Source: an uncultured Roseburia sp. (GTDB lineage: Bacteria > Bacillota_A > Clostridia > Lachnospirales > Lachnospiraceae). Taken from it: a stretch of DNA of 20,119 nucleotides. Positions 978 through 19,418 of the stretch are shown here, in pieces (within the stretch, counting starts at the first letter, position 1; each line of letters begins with the position of its first letter). The position numbers and the translations under genes were made by a program. The notes under the pieces were generated by a model. It had not been told where the DNA came from, did not search any database, and saw only the letters and a program-made list of their open reading frames with translations. The DNA is taken from contig CAAEAE010000106.1 of the NCBI GenBank assembly GCA_900753715.1, positions 1-20,119 of the forward strand, written 5' to 3'.

Positions 978-1985
978 GTGCATTCCGTTGACATCGCTAA
1001 TCACGTGGAGCTCGGCAGCGCCATCGACGCCAAGGACTTTGTTCTGGATGTCAAGATTCTGTTGAACAACCACACGCTCCTCAACCTTGAAATGCAGGTA
1101 CTCAACGAAGGAAATTGGCCCGACCGCTCCCTGTCCTACCTCTGCCGCTCCTTCGATCAGCTGAACCGCGGGCAGAACTACGGGGATGCAAAACCGGTTC
1201 TGCACATCAGTTTTCTGGATTTTACGCTCTTTTCCGACCACCCGGAATTTTATTCCACCTATATGTTATTAAATGTGAAAAATTATACGATTTATAGTGA
1301 CAAATTCGTCCTGTCTGTGGTAAACTTAACTCAGACGAAACTGGCAACCCCGGAAGACAAGGCCTGTCATTTAGACGAATGGGCTGCGCTTTTCAAAGCA
1401 ACCACATGGGAGGAAATACGTATGCTTGCATCCGAAAATGAGTTTATTGCCGAAGCTGCACAAACCATGTATAAGCTCACGGCAGAGGAACAGATCCGAC
1501 AGCAGTGCGAGGCCAGGGAAGATTTCTACCGGCAGCAGAACTATGTAAAATACAGACATGAGAAGGAAATGGCGGAAGCCAGAGAGGATTTTGAGCGACA
1601 GCAGAACTATGTAAAATACAGACATGAGAAAGAAATGGCGGAAGCCAGAGAGGATTTTGAGCGACAGCAGAACTATGTAAAACACAAGCATGAGCAGGAG
1701 ATGGCGGAGGCCAGAGAGGATTTTGAGCGACAGCAGAACTATGTAAAGCACAAGCATGAGCAGGAGATGGCGGAAGCCAGAGAGGATTTTGAGCGACAGC
1801 AGAACTATGTAAAGCACAAGCATGAGCAGGAGATGACGGAAGCGCGGGCAGGTTTTGAAAGGCAGAAACAAGATACCGAGACTGCTCATGAGAGAGAGAT
1901 GGCAGAACAGAAACAGCAGTTTGAGCATGAAATCGCAGAAAAGGACGCCCTCATCGCCCGGCTTCTGTCAGAAAAAGCCAAATAG
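978..1985 (+). pseudogene. Rpn-family PD-(D/E)XK nuclease/putative transposase, N-terminally truncated
   Basis: The frame matches the Rpn (recombination-promoting nuclease, PDDEXK_2) family from its nuclease core onward. Counting from GTG 978, D24 lies in FVLDVK and E38-M-Q40 in LNLEMQV, which are the expected D and ExQ catalytic positions. WPDRSLSYLCRSFD and HISFLDFTLF follow as in the family. The N-terminal region of about 60-70 residues that normally precedes this core is missing. The frame stays open back to 915 without an ATG, and the GTG is about 20 nt from the only ribosome-binding-like sequence (AGAAAGGA, 950-957). The C-terminus is a long charged helical tail made of 22-residue repeats. 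I read it as a decayed or barely translated remnant; the core residues themselves are intact. No terminal inverted repeats were seen. Confidence 0.7.
1512..1907 (+). repeat. 66-bp tandem repeat (five near-identical copies plus one degenerate)
   Basis: Units start at 1512, 1578, 1644, 1710 and 1776, with a diverged sixth at 1842-1907. Each encodes 22 residues of the type AREDFERQQNYVKHKHEQEM followed by AE, rich in charged residues and Gln. Copies 1-2 carry KYRHEK and copies 3-5 carry KHKHEQ, which suggests recent duplication within two sub-groups. The unit equals two 11-residue hendecads, so the encoded segment is probably an extended helix or coiled coil. Copy number could vary between strains by slippage. 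Confidence 0.9.
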
Positions 1986-4802: not shown

Positions 4803-4834
4803 AAAAAACCGCCTCAAGATTTCCTTGAGGCGGT
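4803..4834 (-). terminator. T-box intrinsic terminator
   Basis: A perfect 11-bp stem ACCGCCTCAAG/CTTGAGGCGGT (4834-4824 with 4818-4808) and a 5-nt loop are followed on the minus strand by a T-run at 4808-4803. It is the OFF state of the T-box; the antiterminator forms from the T-box sequence just upstream. Confidence 0.93.
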
Positions 4835-5090
4835 AATCATCATTAACGCGGTGCCACTCAATTTCGATGAACCAAATGATTCATCCTTTGTTCCATGCAC
4901 TATCATACATGTCGCCATGATAACGGGTGCGAATCCCGCCGGTGCCTACTATCGTTTCGGACCGTCCTCGAAAGCCCATTCAGCAGTTGTCCCCATGCCA
5001 CCGTCCCACCAATCGGCAGCTCTCTGTAATAGTTGTCAAAAGCCTACTCTTCTTTCTCACAGGTTTGAAGCACTATTCATTTGTTGTAAA
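4803..5090 (-). promoter_or_regulatory. T-box riboswitch leader, Trp-specific
   Basis: The leader reads uncharged tRNA and decides between termination and readthrough into trpXYZ. Seen on the minus strand: a stem I start with GAGTAGG and AGAGAGC (about 5050-5018), and a specifier loop CTGAA-TGG-GCTTTCGAG with TGG at 4978-4976. The T-box GAGTGGCACCGCG lies at 4859-4847, followed by the terminator. TGG is the Trp codon. The T-box bulge base after TGG is C, which would pair with a G discriminator, as bacterial tRNA-Trp has. The two signals agree with each other and with the downstream importer. Confidence 0.93.
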
Positions 5091-11218: not shown

Positions 11219-11560
11219 TTACTTTTGAAAATAACATTCACTAAATGCAGGTCTCATATATTCTATCTGCCCACGTGAGAGGCCGTATTTTTTTGCGAGT
11301 TTCTCCCAATTATCCCTGACAATTTCAAGTATTTCTTCTGCCATCTTTTCCGCAGCATCTTTTTGAATTCCAAAACGGCAGGATGTATGAATAGCTAATT
11401 CTATTGATATTTTATTGTCCTCGTCGTCCACAAGAAGCGATAGCTCATCCGCAAATAATCCAAAAATATTTTTTCCGGTTGAAAACCGGCGACCTAAAAA
11501 TGGTTGCAGCTGCGGGTCAAGATTCTGAAAAATCATCATATACATGTATGATTTTTTCAT
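11219..11560 (-). pseudogene. HipA-family toxin with internal deletion (kinase core lost)
   Basis: The 113-codon frame starts with ATG directly after the HipB-like stop (TAGATG), the normal hipB-hipA junction. Residues about 11-38 (FQNLDPQLQPFLGRRF, then GLFAD) match the stretch that ends the N-terminal HipA domain just before the usual SSPDRWGR. Residues from about 39 (ELSLLVDDEDNKIS to the end) match the extreme C-terminal helices of HipA. The roughly 250 residues between, which carry the Ser/Thr kinase active site, are absent without a frameshift. A second loss after MKKSYMYM is also likely, because about 40 residues normally precede the LDP block. The product should lack kinase activity. 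Family matching is from memory. Confidence 0.6.
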
Positions 11561-11890
11561 CTATCGCCATTCACTCTTCCTCCTCGTTGCACGTTTCCTT
11601 GTCATAAGGTTAAGATCCTGCATCTGCCTCCCCATTTCGTCGTCCTTCGCCACAAGAAGCATATCCTTGTCCATATCACCTAACGCATGCAAGACAGCAG
11701 CGTAAATCCCGATGGCAACAGCCGGACTGCCCGACTCAACCTTCCATAAAGATGCTCTGCTGATCCCCGCGCGCTCCGCCACCAACTCTGCAGACAAATC
11801 TCGCCGTAATCTCGCTAATTTGATTTGCTCTCCCATTGTTTTCAATATTTCTTCTGTTGCAGGTAATATGTTATAAGCTGCTTTTCTCAT
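11561..11890 (-). CDS. HipB-like antitoxin / XRE-HTH regulator
   Basis: A 109-residue DNA-binding protein of the HipB type found ahead of HipA kinases in gut Firmicutes. The helix-turn-helix spans about residues 20-60 (LSAELVAERAGISRASLWKVE), followed by AIGIYAAVLHALGDMDKDM and a basic tail TRKRATRRK. The start is ATG 11888-11890, with GGAG eight bases upstream; the in-frame ATG at 11905 contains that site itself and is less likely. In an intact pair it would bind and silence HipA and repress the operon. Here the partner has lost its kinase core, so HipB may act only as a repressor. Confidence 0.78.
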   Translation of the reverse strand: MRKAAYNILPATEEILKTMGEQIKLARLRRDLSAELVAERAGISRASLWKVESGSPAVAIGIYAAVLHALGDMDKDMLLVAKDDEMGRQMQDLNLMTRKRATRRKSEWR

Positions 11891-11920
11891 TCTTACACAC
11901 TCCATTGTTTTATGTTTACT

Positions 11921-14115: not shown

Positions 14116-15219
14116 CTACCTCCGCTCCTCATATCTCAGATAAGGAATGGTAATCCAAAGGGGATTTCTCTCATTCTCATCTACCTTTATCTGGGTAAAT
14201 ACTTTGTCCTGTCTCAATAAGGTGTCATCATCCGTAAGTCCCGGTATTCCGTTTGGAAACTCATAATATTTGTAATTTTCTCTGACAAATTCTTTGTTCT
14301 TTGCCCTGCTTTCTCTTTCTATCAGCATAGACTCTCTTTTTGCCTTGGGAAACAGCGCATAGGGAAGCAGTGCCCTGTATACCCTTTCCATGAAATCATC
14401 ATCTCTGACGGCATTCTGATTCTTTTCCATATCCTCCATGGATTTTTTGTGCAGATTATAATTTCCAAAACTGAAATCTGCAGGCGCTTCATTGATATCT
14501 CCCATATCCAGCCGCATTTCTCCGCCGGTAAGAATAGCGTTGTCACAAAAGACTCCCATATCGGGAAGCACCTGTCTGGATTTCAGAAAATATTCCAGTG
14601 CCGCTATATGGGACGCATTCTGTTTATAAATATTTTTCACCCTGTGTTCTTCCCTGCCAAGATGCTGAACCCAGATTTCACTGTTAAAGTTTCCGGTGAA
14701 ATATCCTGCCCGGTTCTTACATTCCAGCACGTGAATCCAGCGATTGGTGATGATAATGGCGTCAATCTCCTGATAACTTCCGTTCGGCATGGGAACACAT
14801 ACATTGTATAATGTTCTGTGCGGAATTTTCAGTTTCCTGCTGAGCACATAGGCGTAAAACTCTCCCAGCACGCCCTTGTCGTTGACAATGTCTTTTCTTG
14901 TCACTCCCGTTGCCAGATAATACTCTGACTTTTGGGGACTCTGGAAAAAGCATGCCAGCGCCGTCATGTCATAGCTTACCAGTATCACTCCCATAAGAAA
15001 CAGTCCCAATACCAATACCGTTTCCAGCACGTTGTTTGCGTCGAGAAGCGGGTTGATAAAGAACAGATACAGCAGCCACCATGCCAGAAGTATAAGGAAA
15101 ACCGCCATTCCTCCATACTTTAATGTCCTTTCCAGCCATCTGCCGAAACTGCTTCCACATTCCTCAATACCGGGAAGTCCCAATGCTTTTCGTATGTTTT
15201 CCTGAATCGCTTTTATCAT
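14116..15219 (-). CDS. Membrane protein with NERD (nuclease-related) domain
   Basis: A 367-residue protein. Two hydrophobic segments near the N-terminus (about 37-55 and 66-82) anchor it, with the rest in the cytoplasm. The NERD fold spans about 115-205: GEF at 119-121, EID at 151-153, LECKN at 165-169, and KQNASHIAAL from about 199. The acidic residues and the E-x-K lysine of this PD-(D/E)XK-like fold are present, so it may cleave nucleic acid, although NERD activity is poorly characterised. GGAGG lies eight bases before ATG 15217-15219. It is the first gene after a copy of the promoter box shared with the sigma factor. Confidence 0.82.
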   Translation of the reverse strand: MIKAIQENIRKALGLPGIEECGSSFGRWLERTLKYGGMAVFLILLAWWLLYLFFINPLLDANNVLETVLVLGLFLMGVILVSYDMTALACFFQSPQKSEYYLATGVTRKDIVNDKGVLGEFYAYVLSRKLKIPHRTLYNVCVPMPNGSYQEIDAIIITNRWIHVLECKNRAGYFTGNFNSEIWVQHLGREEHRVKNIYKQNASHIAALEYFLKSRQVLPDMGVFCDNAILTGGEMRLDMGDINEAPADFSFGNYNLHKKSMEDMEKNQNAVRDDDFMERVYRALLPYALFPKAKRESMLIERESRAKNKEFVRENYKYYEFPNGIPGLTDDDTLLRQDKVFTQIKVDENERNPLWITIPYLRYEERR

Positions 15220-15262: not shown

Positions 15263-15292
15263 TAAGTACCCGTTCATTCCTGTTTGGTTTTA
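15263..15292 (-). promoter_or_regulatory. Putative ECF promoter ahead of the NERD gene (copy 2 of shared box)
   Basis: On the minus strand TAAAACCAAA (15292-15283), 12 nt, GGTACTTA (15270-15263). Both boxes are identical to those ahead of the sigma gene. AACC to GTAC spacing is 16 nt, as in ECF promoters, and an A-rich tract lies upstream. The box ends 44 nt before the NERD start codon. Confidence 0.6.
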
Positions 15293-15308
15293 TTTTTTTG
15301 AAAAAAAT

Positions 15309-17999
15309 CTACATTTCTTTAAAATCTATTTCGTATTTCTGTGCATACTGTTCGGCGGCGGAACCTTTCTCACCGTAAATCACCAGATGGGAGTTGCCGC
15401 TCATGAAAATTCCGTCACCTATCTCAGTGACGCTGGCAGGAATGACAATCTTTTCCAGAGAGTAGCTGTTAAAGAATACCTTGTCCCCAATCTCCTCCAC
15501 GCCGTCCGGAATTACGATTTCTTTCAGGTTACTGCAGGAAGAAAACGCCCTGTCTCCAATCTTTTTTAGAGATCCCGGCAACGTCACGTCGGTAAGATTC
15601 AGATAACCGCTGAATGCCATCGGAGAGATACTTGTCACGCCTTCCTCGATAATGACAGTTGTGGGATCCCCGCGGAAAACATCATACGTCCACGGTGCAA
15701 CCTCTTTCCTTGCGTTGTAATCCGGCATTTCTCCTTCCCCTGATACGGTGAAAACTCCGTTTTCAAAGTGCATGGTAACAGTATCCGTCAGCTGCCATGT
15801 CGTACCGTCGTTGGTCAGGTGAACACCGGAGTCCGTGCTGTTTTCTGCGGATGGTGTCACGGTATTGTTATGCTCATCCGTGTCCAAAACGGGGGAGGAT
15901 AATTTCTTGTAAACATAGTCCGGTGTATCACGGAATGCGTAAGACTCCCAGTCCTCGCCGTCCGGTATATCCACATATATCATTCCGTCCTCTTCCAGAT
16001 AATAAAAGGCAATTCGTCTGTCTATGGGATTTCCTTCCATGTCTGTCAGTGTAAGCGGCTCCAAATCTTTTCCGGTAAAATGGATTTCCTGACCGTCTAA
16101 CGTCCAGTACCCGTCATACTCCCAAAGAGTCTCATAAATATCACCATAGATGTGAACGGACTCCGAACCAATCTTTTTTACATATAGGGTAGGCCCGTCA
16201 GAACCGTCTTTGGGACCCCACTTTTCATACTCCCGCAGATTATCCACATTCGCTATGGTTTTGGGCTTCGTCTCCTCAACCTCCTCAACCGGTCTTCCGT
16301 GGCTTCCTTCAAATTTTTTTACTTTTATGATAATGTCATTCCCGGTAGACAGGGTGAAATACCATCTGTTGGCATCCTCTCTGGATACCTGCATGTAATC
16401 TATCATGGTTCCCGGAGCAGCAGCATCCTCACCTGTCACGGAAACAAACTCAATGGTATACGGAAGATTTAACCGGATTCCCACCGTCTGTCCGTCTTTG
16501 AAGGTACTCCTTAATGCCGCGGTGCTAAAACGGTATTCCCCATCACTCACTTTTTCTGCAGTCAGTGTAGGGCCGTCATACTGATATTCAAACACATAGG
16601 GCTCCGATACCGCCACCTCATACATCTTAATAAACTCAGAGTAATCTTCCTCCAATTCCCAAGCGTCAAATACTTCCTTGACAGAGGTATCCACCAGCCG
16701 GATGATAAAACCTTCTGCTGTACTGATCTGAAATGTAAAGGAATCTGCGGTAAAGTGATACAGATATTGAGGCACCAGCATATCCGGCGTCAAATCCGTC
16801 TGACTGTTGCAATAGGCAACCGCCAGTTCCACGCCCTCTGGCAATCCGCTCATTTTATCTTTTACGATACTGCAAGTTACCATATCTCCGTATTTTTGCA
16901 AATCCTCCGGTCGGAAACGGTATTCCGTATCGGACACCTTGTAAGGATATGCCGCCTCGGCATCCTCTCTCCAGTATTCGCCAAAATACAAGCCAAGGTA
17001 CTCTGACAAATCATCCTCAAGTGTCAGCTTTTCCCCACTTTCGGACTCATCGTTTTCTCCGCCGAATTCATTATCCACCGTCTCTGCCCGGTTGTGGTTG
17101 ATTACACTGATGGCACCCGCGATTCCCGCCCCGGCAACAATCACTGCTCCCGCAATCAAAAATGCCTTTACCGTTGTACTGATGGCAACTGCTTTCGCCC
17201 CTGCTCCTGCGGTTGTCGCTGCCGTGGTTGCGGCTTCTGCAGCGGCAACTCCTGCTGCGGTTACTGCCTCTGCCGCAACGGCACCGCCGGCGGTAATGGC
17301 GCTTGCCTGTAAGCCGATGCCGGAGCAAGCGCCGTTGTATATGGTCTGTGCTGCCTGAACCGTGAGCGAGGTTCTGTCGGACATGGTTCTAATTGCATAC
17401 CAGAGCACCGGCAGTCCGAGAACATGAAGTCTGTAGCCCTCTTTCTTTTCTTTTTCCTCTACTCTTTCTTTGATATACTTTCTGGCATAATTTAACCGAC
17501 TCTTAATCGTATTGACGGAGCACTCCATCAATTCTGCAATCCTCTCCACCTTCAAACCGTCAAAATAATAGGCGACCACTGCCGCCTTCTGCAGTTCGGG
17601 CAGTTCCTCAATAATCCCTTTCACAATCTCGGCAGTTGCCTTCTGGTCTGCCGTGAGTTCCGGCATGAAAGAAATGTCATTGTTTTCAAGGATGTCAAAC
17701 ATTCCCTCTGCCTCTTCCGTCAACAATACATCTCTCTGTTTTCTGTAAATTTTCATTCCCTGATTGTAAGTAATTCCATCCAACCATGAGTACAGTGCTT
17801 CCGCTGCCTGTAGTGTATGTATGTTTTTGTAGGCCTCCACAAAAACAATCTGTGTTAAATCCTGAGCGTCTTCCTCTTTCTTCATAATCTGTTTCGCTCT
17901 GAAATACACCCTGTTATATGTTGCCGAATATACTGCATTAAAACCCGTTTCTTCCCCATTTTTCATCTGCTGTATGGCTTTTTTCAAACTGTCGTCCAT
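15309..17999 (-). CDS. ECF-like sigma factor fused to membrane span and extracellular LRR domain
   Basis: An 896-residue protein. Sigma region 2 spans about 20-90 (DAQDLTQIVFVEAYKNI) and region 4 about 118-180 (LPELQKAAVVAYYFDGLKVERIA, with recognition helix VNTIKSRLNYARKYI). An Ala-rich linker (about 214-275) and one membrane span (about 278-300) follow. Outside are two modules sharing KVSDxEYRF (354-362 and 483-491), further beta-rich sequence, and about four BspA-type LRRs (788-875; LKKIGDRAFSSCSNLKEIVI). Typical ECF factors have about 180-200 residues. The start is ATG 17997-17999 with AGGAG seven bases upstream; the in-frame ATG at 18005 is too close to it. An open frame back to 18077 has no ribosome binding site. 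I infer a transmembrane sensor that carries its own sigma factor. Confidence 0.85.
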   Translation of the reverse strand: MDDSLKKAIQQMKNGEETGFNAVYSATYNRVYFRAKQIMKKEEDAQDLTQIVFVEAYKNIHTLQAAEALYSWLDGITYNQGMKIYRKQRDVLLTEEAEGMFDILENNDISFMPELTADQKATAEIVKGIIEELPELQKAAVVAYYFDGLKVERIAELMECSVNTIKSRLNYARKYIKERVEEKEKKEGYRLHVLGLPVLWYAIRTMSDRTSLTVQAAQTIYNGACSGIGLQASAITAGGAVAAEAVTAAGVAAAEAATTAATTAGAGAKAVAISTTVKAFLIAGAVIVAGAGIAGAISVINHNRAETVDNEFGGENDESESGEKLTLEDDLSEYLGLYFGEYWREDAEAAYPYKVSDTEYRFRPEDLQKYGDMVTCSIVKDKMSGLPEGVELAVAYCNSQTDLTPDMLVPQYLYHFTADSFTFQISTAEGFIIRLVDTSVKEVFDAWELEEDYSEFIKMYEVAVSEPYVFEYQYDGPTLTAEKVSDGEYRFSTAALRSTFKDGQTVGIRLNLPYTIEFVSVTGEDAAAPGTMIDYMQVSREDANRWYFTLSTGNDIIIKVKKFEGSHGRPVEEVEETKPKTIANVDNLREYEKWGPKDGSDGPTLYVKKIGSESVHIYGDIYETLWEYDGYWTLDGQEIHFTGKDLEPLTLTDMEGNPIDRRIAFYYLEEDGMIYVDIPDGEDWESYAFRDTPDYVYKKLSSPVLDTDEHNNTVTPSAENSTDSGVHLTNDGTTWQLTDTVTMHFENGVFTVSGEGEMPDYNARKEVAPWTYDVFRGDPTTVIIEEGVTSISPMAFSGYLNLTDVTLPGSLKKIGDRAFSSCSNLKEIVIPDGVEEIGDKVFFNSYSLEKIVIPASVTEIGDGIFMSGNSHLVIYGEKGSAAEQYAQKYEIDFKEM

Positions 18000-18057
18000 T
18001 CTCATTCTCCTTTGTGCAATTATTTTGGTGGAATTACTTACTGCTCCTTTCTGATAA

Positions 18058-18087
18058 TAAGTACCTGTCGGGAGCAATTTGGTTTTA
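18058..18087 (-). promoter_or_regulatory. Putative autoregulated ECF promoter of the sigma-LRR gene (copy 1 of shared box)
   Basis: TAAAACCAAA (18087-18078), 12 nt, GGTACTTA (18065-18058) on the minus strand, with an A/T-rich tract upstream. The downstream AGAAAG also recurs at the same distance in copy 2. The AACC core fits the AAC motif common in ECF -35 elements. Confidence 0.6.
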
Positions 18088-18500: not shown

Positions 18501-19418
18501 TTAAGCATTGTGCGGAATATCTAACATATCAAGAATCCTTACAAATGTATCTTGTCCATCAAGGCAAGTATCTATAAGCCATCCCTTCTCATTTCTCCAT
18601 TCAGACAAGCCTCTGTAATAAAAACCTTTTTTGCTATCTTCAATAATAAATGGAATAATATTATTCTTAAGACACTCCTTTAAAACAATTAACCTGCCAA
18701 CTCTTCCATTCCCATCTTGAAATGGGTGAATATACTCGAACTCAGCATGAAGCGCAATAATATCTTCAATCTTTATACTTTCTTTTGAATTGTAATTTTC
18801 AAGAAGTTCCCTCATATGTTTAGAAACCTCTGATGGTTTTGATGTTTCCCTTCCTCCAACCACATTAGCACGTTTTTTGTAATCTCCAACTGCAAACCAA
18901 GAAAACGTCGAATCCTTGGTATCATGTTTAATAATGTAATGCAGTTTCTTTATTATTTCTTCTGTTAATTCATCTTCAGCGATATCAATACAATAGTCTA
19001 TTGCTCTGAAATGATGAACTGTCTCAAGAATATCATCTACAGGAATACCGTCTCCCATATCAATTGTATTCGTTTCAAAAATAAGTCTTGTCTGGTCTTC
19101 AGATAGTTTACTTCCCTCAATATGATTTGAATTGTATGTCATCCTGATCTGAAGTTCATGATAAAGACCACCAGGAAGATGTATCTCTTTCTCATCTCTT
19201 AGCATCTGAAGTATTTTATTATTCGATTCTATACGGTAAAGTAATTCTGGCGTAACCTCCAAATAATTAGCAATTTTATTTAGAGTATTTTTCGAAAGTT
19301 TTTCCCCTTTAGCAATCTTAGCGACTGTTCGTGTGGATAATCCCAATTCTAAACGGAGTTCTGTTTTACCAATACCTTTTTCTTTCAGTAACATTTCTAA
19401 CCCATTATAAGAGAACAT
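18501..19418 (-). CDS. HTH-Fic protein (AMP-transferase type) with built-in inhibitory helix
   Basis: A 305-residue protein. An N-terminal XRE-type helix-turn-helix spans about 8-62 (KTELRLELGLSTRTVAKIAKG). The inhibitory motif S97-N-H-I-E101-G102 fits [S/T]xxxE[G/N] and places it among Fic proteins with an N-terminal self-inhibiting helix. The Fic active site HPFQDGNGRVGR is at 231-242, complete with the catalytic histidine and nucleotide-binding residues. It probably transfers AMP to a protein hydroxyl when released from inhibition; the target is unknown. GGGAGGT lies eight bases before ATG 19416-19418. It stands alone without a separate antitoxin gene. Base composition is clearly A/T richer than the genes to the left, which suggests acquisition. 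Confidence 0.9.
   Translation of the reverse strand: MFSYNGLEMLLKEKGIGKTELRLELGLSTRTVAKIAKGEKLSKNTLNKIANYLEVTPELLYRIESNNKILQMLRDEKEIHLPGGLYHELQIRMTYNSNHIEGSKLSEDQTRLIFETNTIDMGDGIPVDDILETVHHFRAIDYCIDIAEDELTEEIIKKLHYIIKHDTKDSTFSWFAVGDYKKRANVVGGRETSKPSEVSKHMRELLENYNSKESIKIEDIIALHAEFEYIHPFQDGNGRVGRLIVLKECLKNNIIPFIIEDSKKGFYYRGLSEWRNEKGWLIDTCLDGQDTFVRILDMLDIPHNA

What the first reader, a model, noticed from the sequence alone, without database searches (positions are those of the whole stretch)
15263..18087. Identical two-part promoter box ahead of the sigma gene and the NERD gene
TAAAACCAAA-N12-GGTACTTA occurs at 18087-18058 and 15292-15263, both on the minus strand, 44-59 nt before a start codon. 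The 12-nt spacers differ in sequence but not in length, and AGAAAG follows at the same distance. Eighteen fixed positions at fixed spacing are unlikely by chance. The AACC core and 16-nt spacing to GTAC look like an ECF promoter. I infer that this sigma factor activates its own gene and the three genes behind the second copy.
Basis: partly seen in the sequence, partly recalled or inferred. Interest (0 to 1): 0.82.

Follow-up and report, generated by a model that had tools for sequence, protein, structure and literature searches.

The report
Private promoter of membrane-anchored sigma factor
Two identical DNA boxes in this bacterium look like on-switches read by one membrane-anchored regulator, one in front of its own gene and one in front of the neighbouring genes, and the same arrangement recurs in its relatives.

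Summary
Observation confirmed: the box occurs exactly twice, at 18087-18058(-) and 15292-15263(-); shuffles give 0.02. Across relatives the core is TAAAAC(C/T)-N15-(G/T)G(T/A)AC(T/A), an ECF-type promoter. In 564 kb around related sigma genes it occurs 58 times at spacer 15 and never at 10-14 or 16-20; 57 of 58 lie on the sigma strand. In a tree of 77 sigma proteins, 37 of 40 rows of one clade have the box before or near the gene, against 0 of 37 outside. In L001 (sigma domain 82% identical) the same operon keeps both boxes. The sigma is fused to a membrane helix and a variable ectodomain. Best reading: it activates its own gene and the NERD operon, a small local regulon; release by proteolysis is inferred from IutY. 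Caveats: the window's genome is not held; no transcripts were seen; at two mismatches a scan of 12 relative genomes shows no excess (108 vs 167 control); 17 of the 37 have the box only near, not directly before, the sigma gene. New variant of a known kind.

The parts
18058..18087 (-). Box 1: promoter TAAAACC-N15-GGTACTTA of the sigma gene (putative -35 TAAAACC, -10 GGTAC)
   Evidence: exact; conserved upstream of relatives
18047..18052 (-). AGAAAG at fixed distance after box 1; in relatives a weaker TAGAA-like element at this place, possibly around the transcription start
   Evidence: unforced columns
15263..15292 (-). Box 2: internal promoter between sigma and NERD genes, 16 nt after the sigma stop
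   Evidence: same place in L001
15252..15257 (-). AGAAAG at the same distance after box 2
15309..17999 (-). Sigma gene, 896 aa: ECF sigma domain, transmembrane helix, beta-rich ectodomain ending in BspA-type LRR
   Evidence: Sigma70_r2, Sigma70_r4_2, LRR_5; TIGR02937 73.1 bits, cutoff 42.9
17430..17999 (-). ECF sigma domain, residues about 1-190
   Evidence: best solved match SigW 5wuq
17136..17192 (-). Predicted transmembrane helix, residues about 270-288
   Evidence: hydropathy
14116..15219 (-). NERD-domain protein, 367 aa, N-terminal hydrophobic region
   Evidence: PF08378 56 bits; 46% to L001
12859..14112 (-). 417-aa predicted membrane protein with LRR_5 ectodomain
   Evidence: part of its N-terminal region 38% over 91 aa to L001
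12227..12844 (-). 205-aa protein, no Pfam family, third gene of the NERD operon
   Evidence: 41% to L001

Best explanation
The two boxes are promoters of one ECF-type sigma factor, the 896-aa protein encoded at 17999-15309. That protein is a single-chain receptor: an N-terminal sigma2-sigma4 module, a transmembrane helix and a large variable ectodomain. When the module is active it directs RNA polymerase to box 1 (its own gene, positive feedback) and to box 2 (the NERD / LRR-membrane / 205-aa operon just behind it). The regulon is essentially local. Supported by comparison: both boxes, their fixed geometry, conservation with the sigma clade and the linkage. Inferred: that this sigma itself reads them, and that an outside signal frees the sigma module by proteolysis in or near the membrane helix, as in IutY.
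For: Exact pair in the window. Spacer test: up to 1 mismatch, 34 matches at spacer 15 and none at spacers 9-14 or 16-21 in 33 loci, 488 kb; relaxed core, 58 at 15, none at 10-14 or 16-20, 57 of 58 on the sigma strand, reversed control 2. Tree: 37 of 40 rows in the clade, 0 of 37 outside. Same 397 genomes: sigma with E<=1e-60 in 6, exact box in 6, both in 4, hypergeometric P 2.2e-7, kinship ignored; the other two sigma genomes (G392, G078) have the relaxed box just before the sigma gene. Syntenic operon with both boxes in L001. Boxes in one locus resemble each other more than boxes of different loci: 6.3 vs 9.6 differences in 29 columns, 0 of 2000 label shuffles as low. Relaxed core in 17 genomes: 28 hits within 8.5 kb of a sigma gene, 0.28 expected from the rate elsewhere. 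ECF fold and family.
Against: No transcript, binding or reporter data. The window's own genome is not held, so its full regulon is unknown. At two mismatches, or with the relaxed core, there is no genome-wide excess (108 vs 167 reversed; 84 vs 103 in total). With two mismatches other spacers also occur by chance in the sigma loci (0-5 each, against 41 at spacer 15). In 17 of the 37 box-bearing rows the box is near, not within 450 nt before, the sigma gene (for example L040, L126, L121, L122). Two of 6 exact-box genomes lack a close sigma (G117 none at 1e-12, probably chance; G313 only a weak match, box beside what looks like a truncated relic). The E<=1e-60 limit was set after seeing the list; at 1e-25 the sigma is in 36 of 397 and the overlap is still 4. 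The -10 element is GGTAC, not the textbook CGT. Release by proteolysis is untested.
Confidence: 0.88

Rival explanations
1. The box is an operator for a transcription factor, not a promoter: TAA-ACC and GGT--TTA form an imperfect dyad about two helical turns apart.
For: The halves are partly inverted (TAAAACC against TAAGTACC, read).
Against: A symmetric operator should occur in both orientations, but 57 of 58 point the way of the sigma gene. A further TAGAA-like element lies only on the downstream side. Presence follows the sigma phylogeny. AAC and the spacing fit ECF promoters such as SigW TGAAAC-N16,17-CGTA (PMC2375139, passage).
Confidence: 0.06
2. Box 2 is a recent duplicate of box 1 or a passive sequence, and the NERD operon is expressed by read-through from the sigma gene.
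For: No terminator-like site was found between 15309 and 15219 on the minus strand, so read-through is likely to add to expression.
Against: The spacers of the two window boxes match at only 6 of 15 positions; L001 keeps both boxes, and its spacers match the window's at 4 of 15 (box 1) and 8 of 15 (box 2). Second boxes precede unrelated genes in other loci.
Confidence: 0.08
3. Another ECF sigma of the same genome reads the boxes, and the membrane-anchored sigma is only one of the target genes.
For: Some box-bearing loci lack the box directly before the sigma gene (L040, L121, L122, L126).
Against: The box is tied to this sigma clade. Of 17 sigma-bearing relative genomes, 16 have one sigma of this kind at E<=1e-50 and G342 has four. 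Other, distant ECF sigmas were not examined.
Confidence: 0.06

Closest known systems
Autoregulated ECF sigma factors such as Bacillus SigW (TGAAAC-N16,17-CGTA)
   Same: AAC in the -35 element, 16 nt to the -10, own gene among the apparent targets, sigma2-sigma4 similarity to SigW; that SigW is autoregulated was seen only as a cited title
   Different: -35 is TAAAACC, -10 is GGTAC(T); no recognisable separate anti-sigma gene; regulon apparently confined to the own locus
IutY of Pseudomonas putida (ECF243), sigma and anti-sigma in one chain
   Same: Sigma module, membrane segment and outside domain in one polypeptide (PMC5411451 and PMC8999054, passages)
   Different: IutY answers aerobactin through a cell-surface receptor; here relatives are Lachnospiraceae, the ectodomain is LRR/beta-rich and variable, and proteolysis is untested
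ECF52 SCO4117 and the ECF48/ECF53 groups of Actinobacteria
   Same: C-terminal fusion to membrane helices and further domains (PMC8999054, passages)
   Different: They are described with a zinc-finger domain; none was detected by Pfam here
SigI/RsgI of Clostridium thermocellum
   Same: Outside sensor, membrane domain and autoregulated sigma (PMC6056542, passages)
   Different: Sensor and sigma are separate proteins and the promoter is A-tract/CGAA

Membership tests
ECF (group IV sigma70) sigma factor | sigma2 and sigma4 domains with ECF-type similarity | tested here: met
   Sigma70_r2, Sigma70_r4_2; TIGR02937 73.1 bits over cutoff 42.9
ECF (group IV sigma70) sigma factor | Promoter with AAC in the -35 box | tested here: met
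   TAAAACC in both boxes and relatives; that it is a -35 box is inferred
ECF (group IV sigma70) sigma factor | Promoter with CGT in the -10 box (early hallmark; PMC8103513) | tested here: not met
   GGTAC or GGAAC instead; the review says the defining features were later restricted to sigma2/sigma4 (passage), so this does not exclude membership
ECF (group IV sigma70) sigma factor | Positive autoregulation | tested here: inconclusive
   promoter box conserved upstream of own gene; no expression data
ECF (group IV sigma70) sigma factor | Co-transcribed separate anti-sigma factor | tested here: inconclusive
   no neighbour matches an anti-sigma family in Pfam or NCBIfam, but the 205-aa gene has no family at all; a membrane part is fused
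IutY-like fused sigma/anti-sigma | Sigma module, membrane helix and outside domain in one chain | tested here: met
   hydropathy; topology is predicted, not shown
IutY-like fused sigma/anti-sigma | Recognisable anti-sigma domain | tested here: inconclusive
   no Pfam hit between 190 and 270; two low-confidence helices at 196-227
IutY-like fused sigma/anti-sigma | Activation by Prc and RseP proteolysis | not testable with these tools
   needs experiment
SigI/RsgI system | SigI sigma with separate RsgI, A-tract/CGAA promoter | tested here: not met
   single chain, different promoter
A numbered ECF group of the 2021 classification | Match to a group model | not tested
   paper not held, no group models available

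The most novel reading that the evidence does not exclude
A clade of Lachnospiraceae and related gut and rumen bacteria carries portable one-protein switches: a sigma factor anchored in the membrane by a swappable outside sensor, reading a private promoter that occurs almost only at its own locus, where it drives itself and neighbouring cell-surface genes. Here the output is a membrane NERD nuclease-like operon whose NERD gene was found in 1 of 397 family genomes, the one with the closest sigma, so the cassette could be a contact- or phage-triggered response.
Probability: 0.35. Interest if true: 0.7.

Novelty: new variant of a known kind. Interest (0 to 1): 0.52.

Why it matters
It gives a defined promoter for a clade of single-chain membrane sigma factors and so makes their likely targets predictable from sequence. 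Because sigma, sensor and target promoter sit in one short stretch, the whole pathway can be rebuilt and tested in a laboratory host. It also shows that the useful signal is the exact box at the sigma locus, since loose genome-wide scans are swamped by chance.

Tried and rejected
Whole-genome scan of the window's own genome: not possible, none is held; relatives were used instead. Genome-wide scan with two mismatches: no excess over the reversed pattern, so only exact or local matches were used as evidence. Relaxed core genome-wide: 84 hits against 103 control; only the 28 near sigma genes are informative. Viral contigs: 36 stretches matched a pattern, none encodes a relative. Anti-phage library: the NERD protein has only a weak PglW match (E 0.0005; NCBIfam 17.1 bits against a cutoff of 990), so no defence system is claimed. 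Rfam: no RNA family over the boxes in the 9 sources searched; a T-box elsewhere in the window. Structure of the full sigma: mean pLDDT 64, pTM 0.34; only the sigma and LRR folds were used. Linkage of NERD and sigma in metagenomes is only hinted at by identical longest-contig lengths and is not used as proof.

Results against a simple picture: the motif score also reached 8 for L039, L066 and L073, which lie outside the clade and lack the relaxed core (L066 and L073 have TAAAACC...GGCACC); a related specificity beyond the clade is possible. In one search and no further NERD-sigma pair was found, so the second box before NERD rests on the window and L001 alone.

Choices that affect counts: one search used 33 loci at 44% identity or more and 40 under 40%, leaving out 6 loci between these limits (L020, L031, L032, L033, L037, L041); its 3 hits in the low group are in L035 and L056, which are members of the box clade. 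In some searches L005, L008, L019, L023 and L030 were dropped as overlaps or near-copies; one search also dropped L010, L011, L062, L076 and identical or short rows. In one search, 86 of 88 sigma genes had enough upstream DNA, and near-copies (L004/L005) were not held out from each other. In one search the forced columns of the search pattern are conserved by construction; only the unforced ones are evidence, and pairs with 9 or more equal spacer positions were left out. In one search two boxes (L031, L033) had no frame of 60 aa behind them, the background is a crude ORF set, and taking the longest frame missed some likely true starts (L126, L122, L006). One search covered 10 of the genes behind second boxes, not all.

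Full report
WHAT IS THERE. The window carries TAAAACCAAA-N12-GGTACTTA exactly twice, at 18087-18058(-) and 15292-15263(-); shuffles of the window give on average 0.02 matches even with 3 mismatches. AGAAAG follows both after 5 nt, and ATG follows after 58 and 43 nt. Box 1 precedes an 896-aa sigma gene (ATG 17999). Box 2 lies 16 nt after its stop and precedes NERD (15219-14116), a 417-aa LRR membrane protein (14112-12859) and a 205-aa protein (12844-12227), with gaps of 3 and 14 nt. The next gene (11905) has a sigma70-like site of its own (11 of 12 matches, a consensus match only), so three genes behind box 2 is a fair reading.

THE SIGMA. Pfam finds Sigma70_r2 and r4_2 and a C-terminal LRR_5; NCBIfam TIGR02937 scores 73.1 against a cutoff of 42.9; the closest solved sequence is SigW. 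Hydropathy puts a membrane helix at about 270-288. Of 88 sigma genes found in 84 sources 83 are untruncated, and 82 of these have such a helix starting at residue 237-363, followed by 135 to 687 residues; L024 misses the threshold. In the 31-row alignment nearly all invariant columns lie in the first 230 residues and the rest varies strongly. The AlphaFold2 model is modest (pLDDT 64, pTM 0.34), with sigma helices, a disordered stretch and a beta-rich ectodomain; fold search returns ECF sigmas and BspA-type LRR proteins.

CONSERVATION. One scan gave the best 80 of 240 relatives in genome contigs. With a leave-locus-out motif, 24 of 86 scorable sigma genes have a box (score 8 or more) within 200 nt upstream. 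In 33 loci with sigma at 44% identity or more, up to one mismatch, there are 34 matches at spacer 15 and none at any other spacer from 9 to 21; with two mismatches 41 at spacer 15 and 0 to 5 at each other spacer. In 40 loci under 40% identity there are 3 matches with up to one mismatch, all in L035 and L056. With the relaxed core in loci at 40% or more, there are 58 at spacer 15, none at 10-14 or 16-20, 57 of 58 on the sigma strand, and 2 for the reversed pattern. On a tree of 77 sigma rows, one side of a supported branch (98/85; 40 rows) holds all boxes: 20 rows with the box within 450 nt before the sigma gene, 17 with it within 8 kb, 3 none (L017 has almost no upstream DNA, L022 has a variant box, L028 has one on the other strand); 0 of 37 outside. 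So this looks like the promoter of one sigma clade.

THE SECOND BOX. In L001 the operon is the same: sigma, 363-aa NERD (46%), 110-aa membrane protein (38% over 91 aa), 225-aa protein (41%), with both boxes exact; its spacers match the window's at 4 and 8 of 15 positions. Elsewhere a box precedes other genes near the sigma: lipoprotein-like (L004, L021, L041), choline-binding (L037, L126), M48 peptidase and transglutaminase (L121), fn3 (L122) and LRR (L126) proteins, among others; 2 of the 10 scanned have no Pfam family. Of 28 non-sigma first genes, 19 have an N-terminal hydrophobic segment, against 116 of 357 background ORFs (P 3e-4). Boxes in one locus share variants, such as GGAAC in both boxes of L007 and AAAACT in both of L014; over pairs with unlike spacers the difference is 6.3 within (22 pairs) against 9.6 between loci (1453 pairs). 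L036 is a partial exception.

GENOME-WIDE. In 12 relative genomes 11 of 12 exact matches lie within about 4 kb of the sigma gene; at two mismatches there is no excess (108 vs 167). In 397 family genomes the exact box occurs 12 times in 6 genomes, the reversed pattern 4 times in 4; the sigma at E<=1e-60 occurs in 6, and 4 genomes have both (P 2.2e-7, ignoring kinship, limit set afterwards; at 1e-25 the sigma is in 36). The two sigma genomes without an exact box, G392 and G078, have the relaxed box just before the sigma gene. Of the two with a box and no close sigma, G313 has it before a truncated copy of the small HTH gene that precedes sigma in G002, which suggests a relic; G117 is probably chance. 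With the relaxed core, 28 of 84 hits in 17 genomes lie near sigma genes against 0.28 expected, and the other 56 look like background; the core was drawn from such loci, so this figure is descriptive. The NERD protein (E<=1e-25) occurs in 1 of the 397, the one with the closest sigma.

HOW IT PROBABLY WORKS. An outside signal acts on the ectodomain; the sigma module is freed or exposed; with core polymerase it reads box 1 and box 2 and raises both the sensor-sigma and the NERD operon; read-through from box 1 into NERD is likely to add. The promoter part rests on the comparisons above. The release step is inference from IutY, where Prc and RseP cleave a one-chain sigma/anti-sigma (PMC5411451 and PMC8999054, passages seen). 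Function of the NERD operon is open; a weak PglW match is not enough to call it defence.

COMPARISON AND NOVELTY. Early ECF hallmarks are AAC and CGT boxes and autoregulation, and a prediction tool put about 55% of ECFs as autoregulated (PMC8103513, passages). SigW reads TGAAAC-N16,17-CGTA (PMC2375139, passage). The box fits this plan with TAAAACC and GGTAC. Fused membrane ECFs are described for Pseudomonas and Actinobacteria (PMC8999054, passages). In the listings of ten library searches (two were on SigW promoters and NERD) I saw no paper on a Lachnospiraceae clade of this kind, but the listings are capped and the 2021 ECF classification is not held, so it may already bear a group number. 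I rate it a new variant of a known kind.

Noticed in passing
window 4823-5069 (-): Rfam T-box leader (107.5 bits) upstream of an ABC-transporter-type substrate-binding lipoprotein, permease and ATPase (the latter names read from the translations, not searched).
   Followed up: no
window 978-1985 (+): 335-aa reading frame with several near-identical repeats of about 20 residues (AREDFERQQNYVKHKHEQEMAE and the like).
   Followed up: no
window 18501-19418 (-): Fic/DOC protein with N-terminal HTH beside the sigma gene.
   Followed up: no
window 11219-11905 (-): Small HTH gene followed at once by a 113-aa gene without a Pfam family; looks like a HipB/HipA-N-like pair (an impression, not a search result).
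   Followed up: no
L032, about 1.5-1.8 kb downstream of the sigma start: Five boxes in tandem 66-68 nt apart before one secreted-protein gene, four of them with the same spacer; L121 has tandem pairs about 110 nt apart.
   Followed up: partly
L009:7725-7994 and the like in L010, L011, L013: Box 200-270 nt before the sigma ATG with a long leader holding AGCCGAT and ATCGG stretches that could pair near the ribosome site; no Rfam match in L009 and L013, the two of these that were searched.
   Followed up: partly
L066, L068, L073, L078 upstream of sigma: These relatives (three titled Flavonifractor) share another conserved stretch, TAAAACC-N15 followed by a CAC-AA-CAGAC-like part, perhaps a different promoter specificity.
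   Followed up: no
L124:7638-7667: Exact box before a truncated HTH frame without a close sigma in that genome, apparently a relic of a lost sigma cassette.
   Followed up: partly
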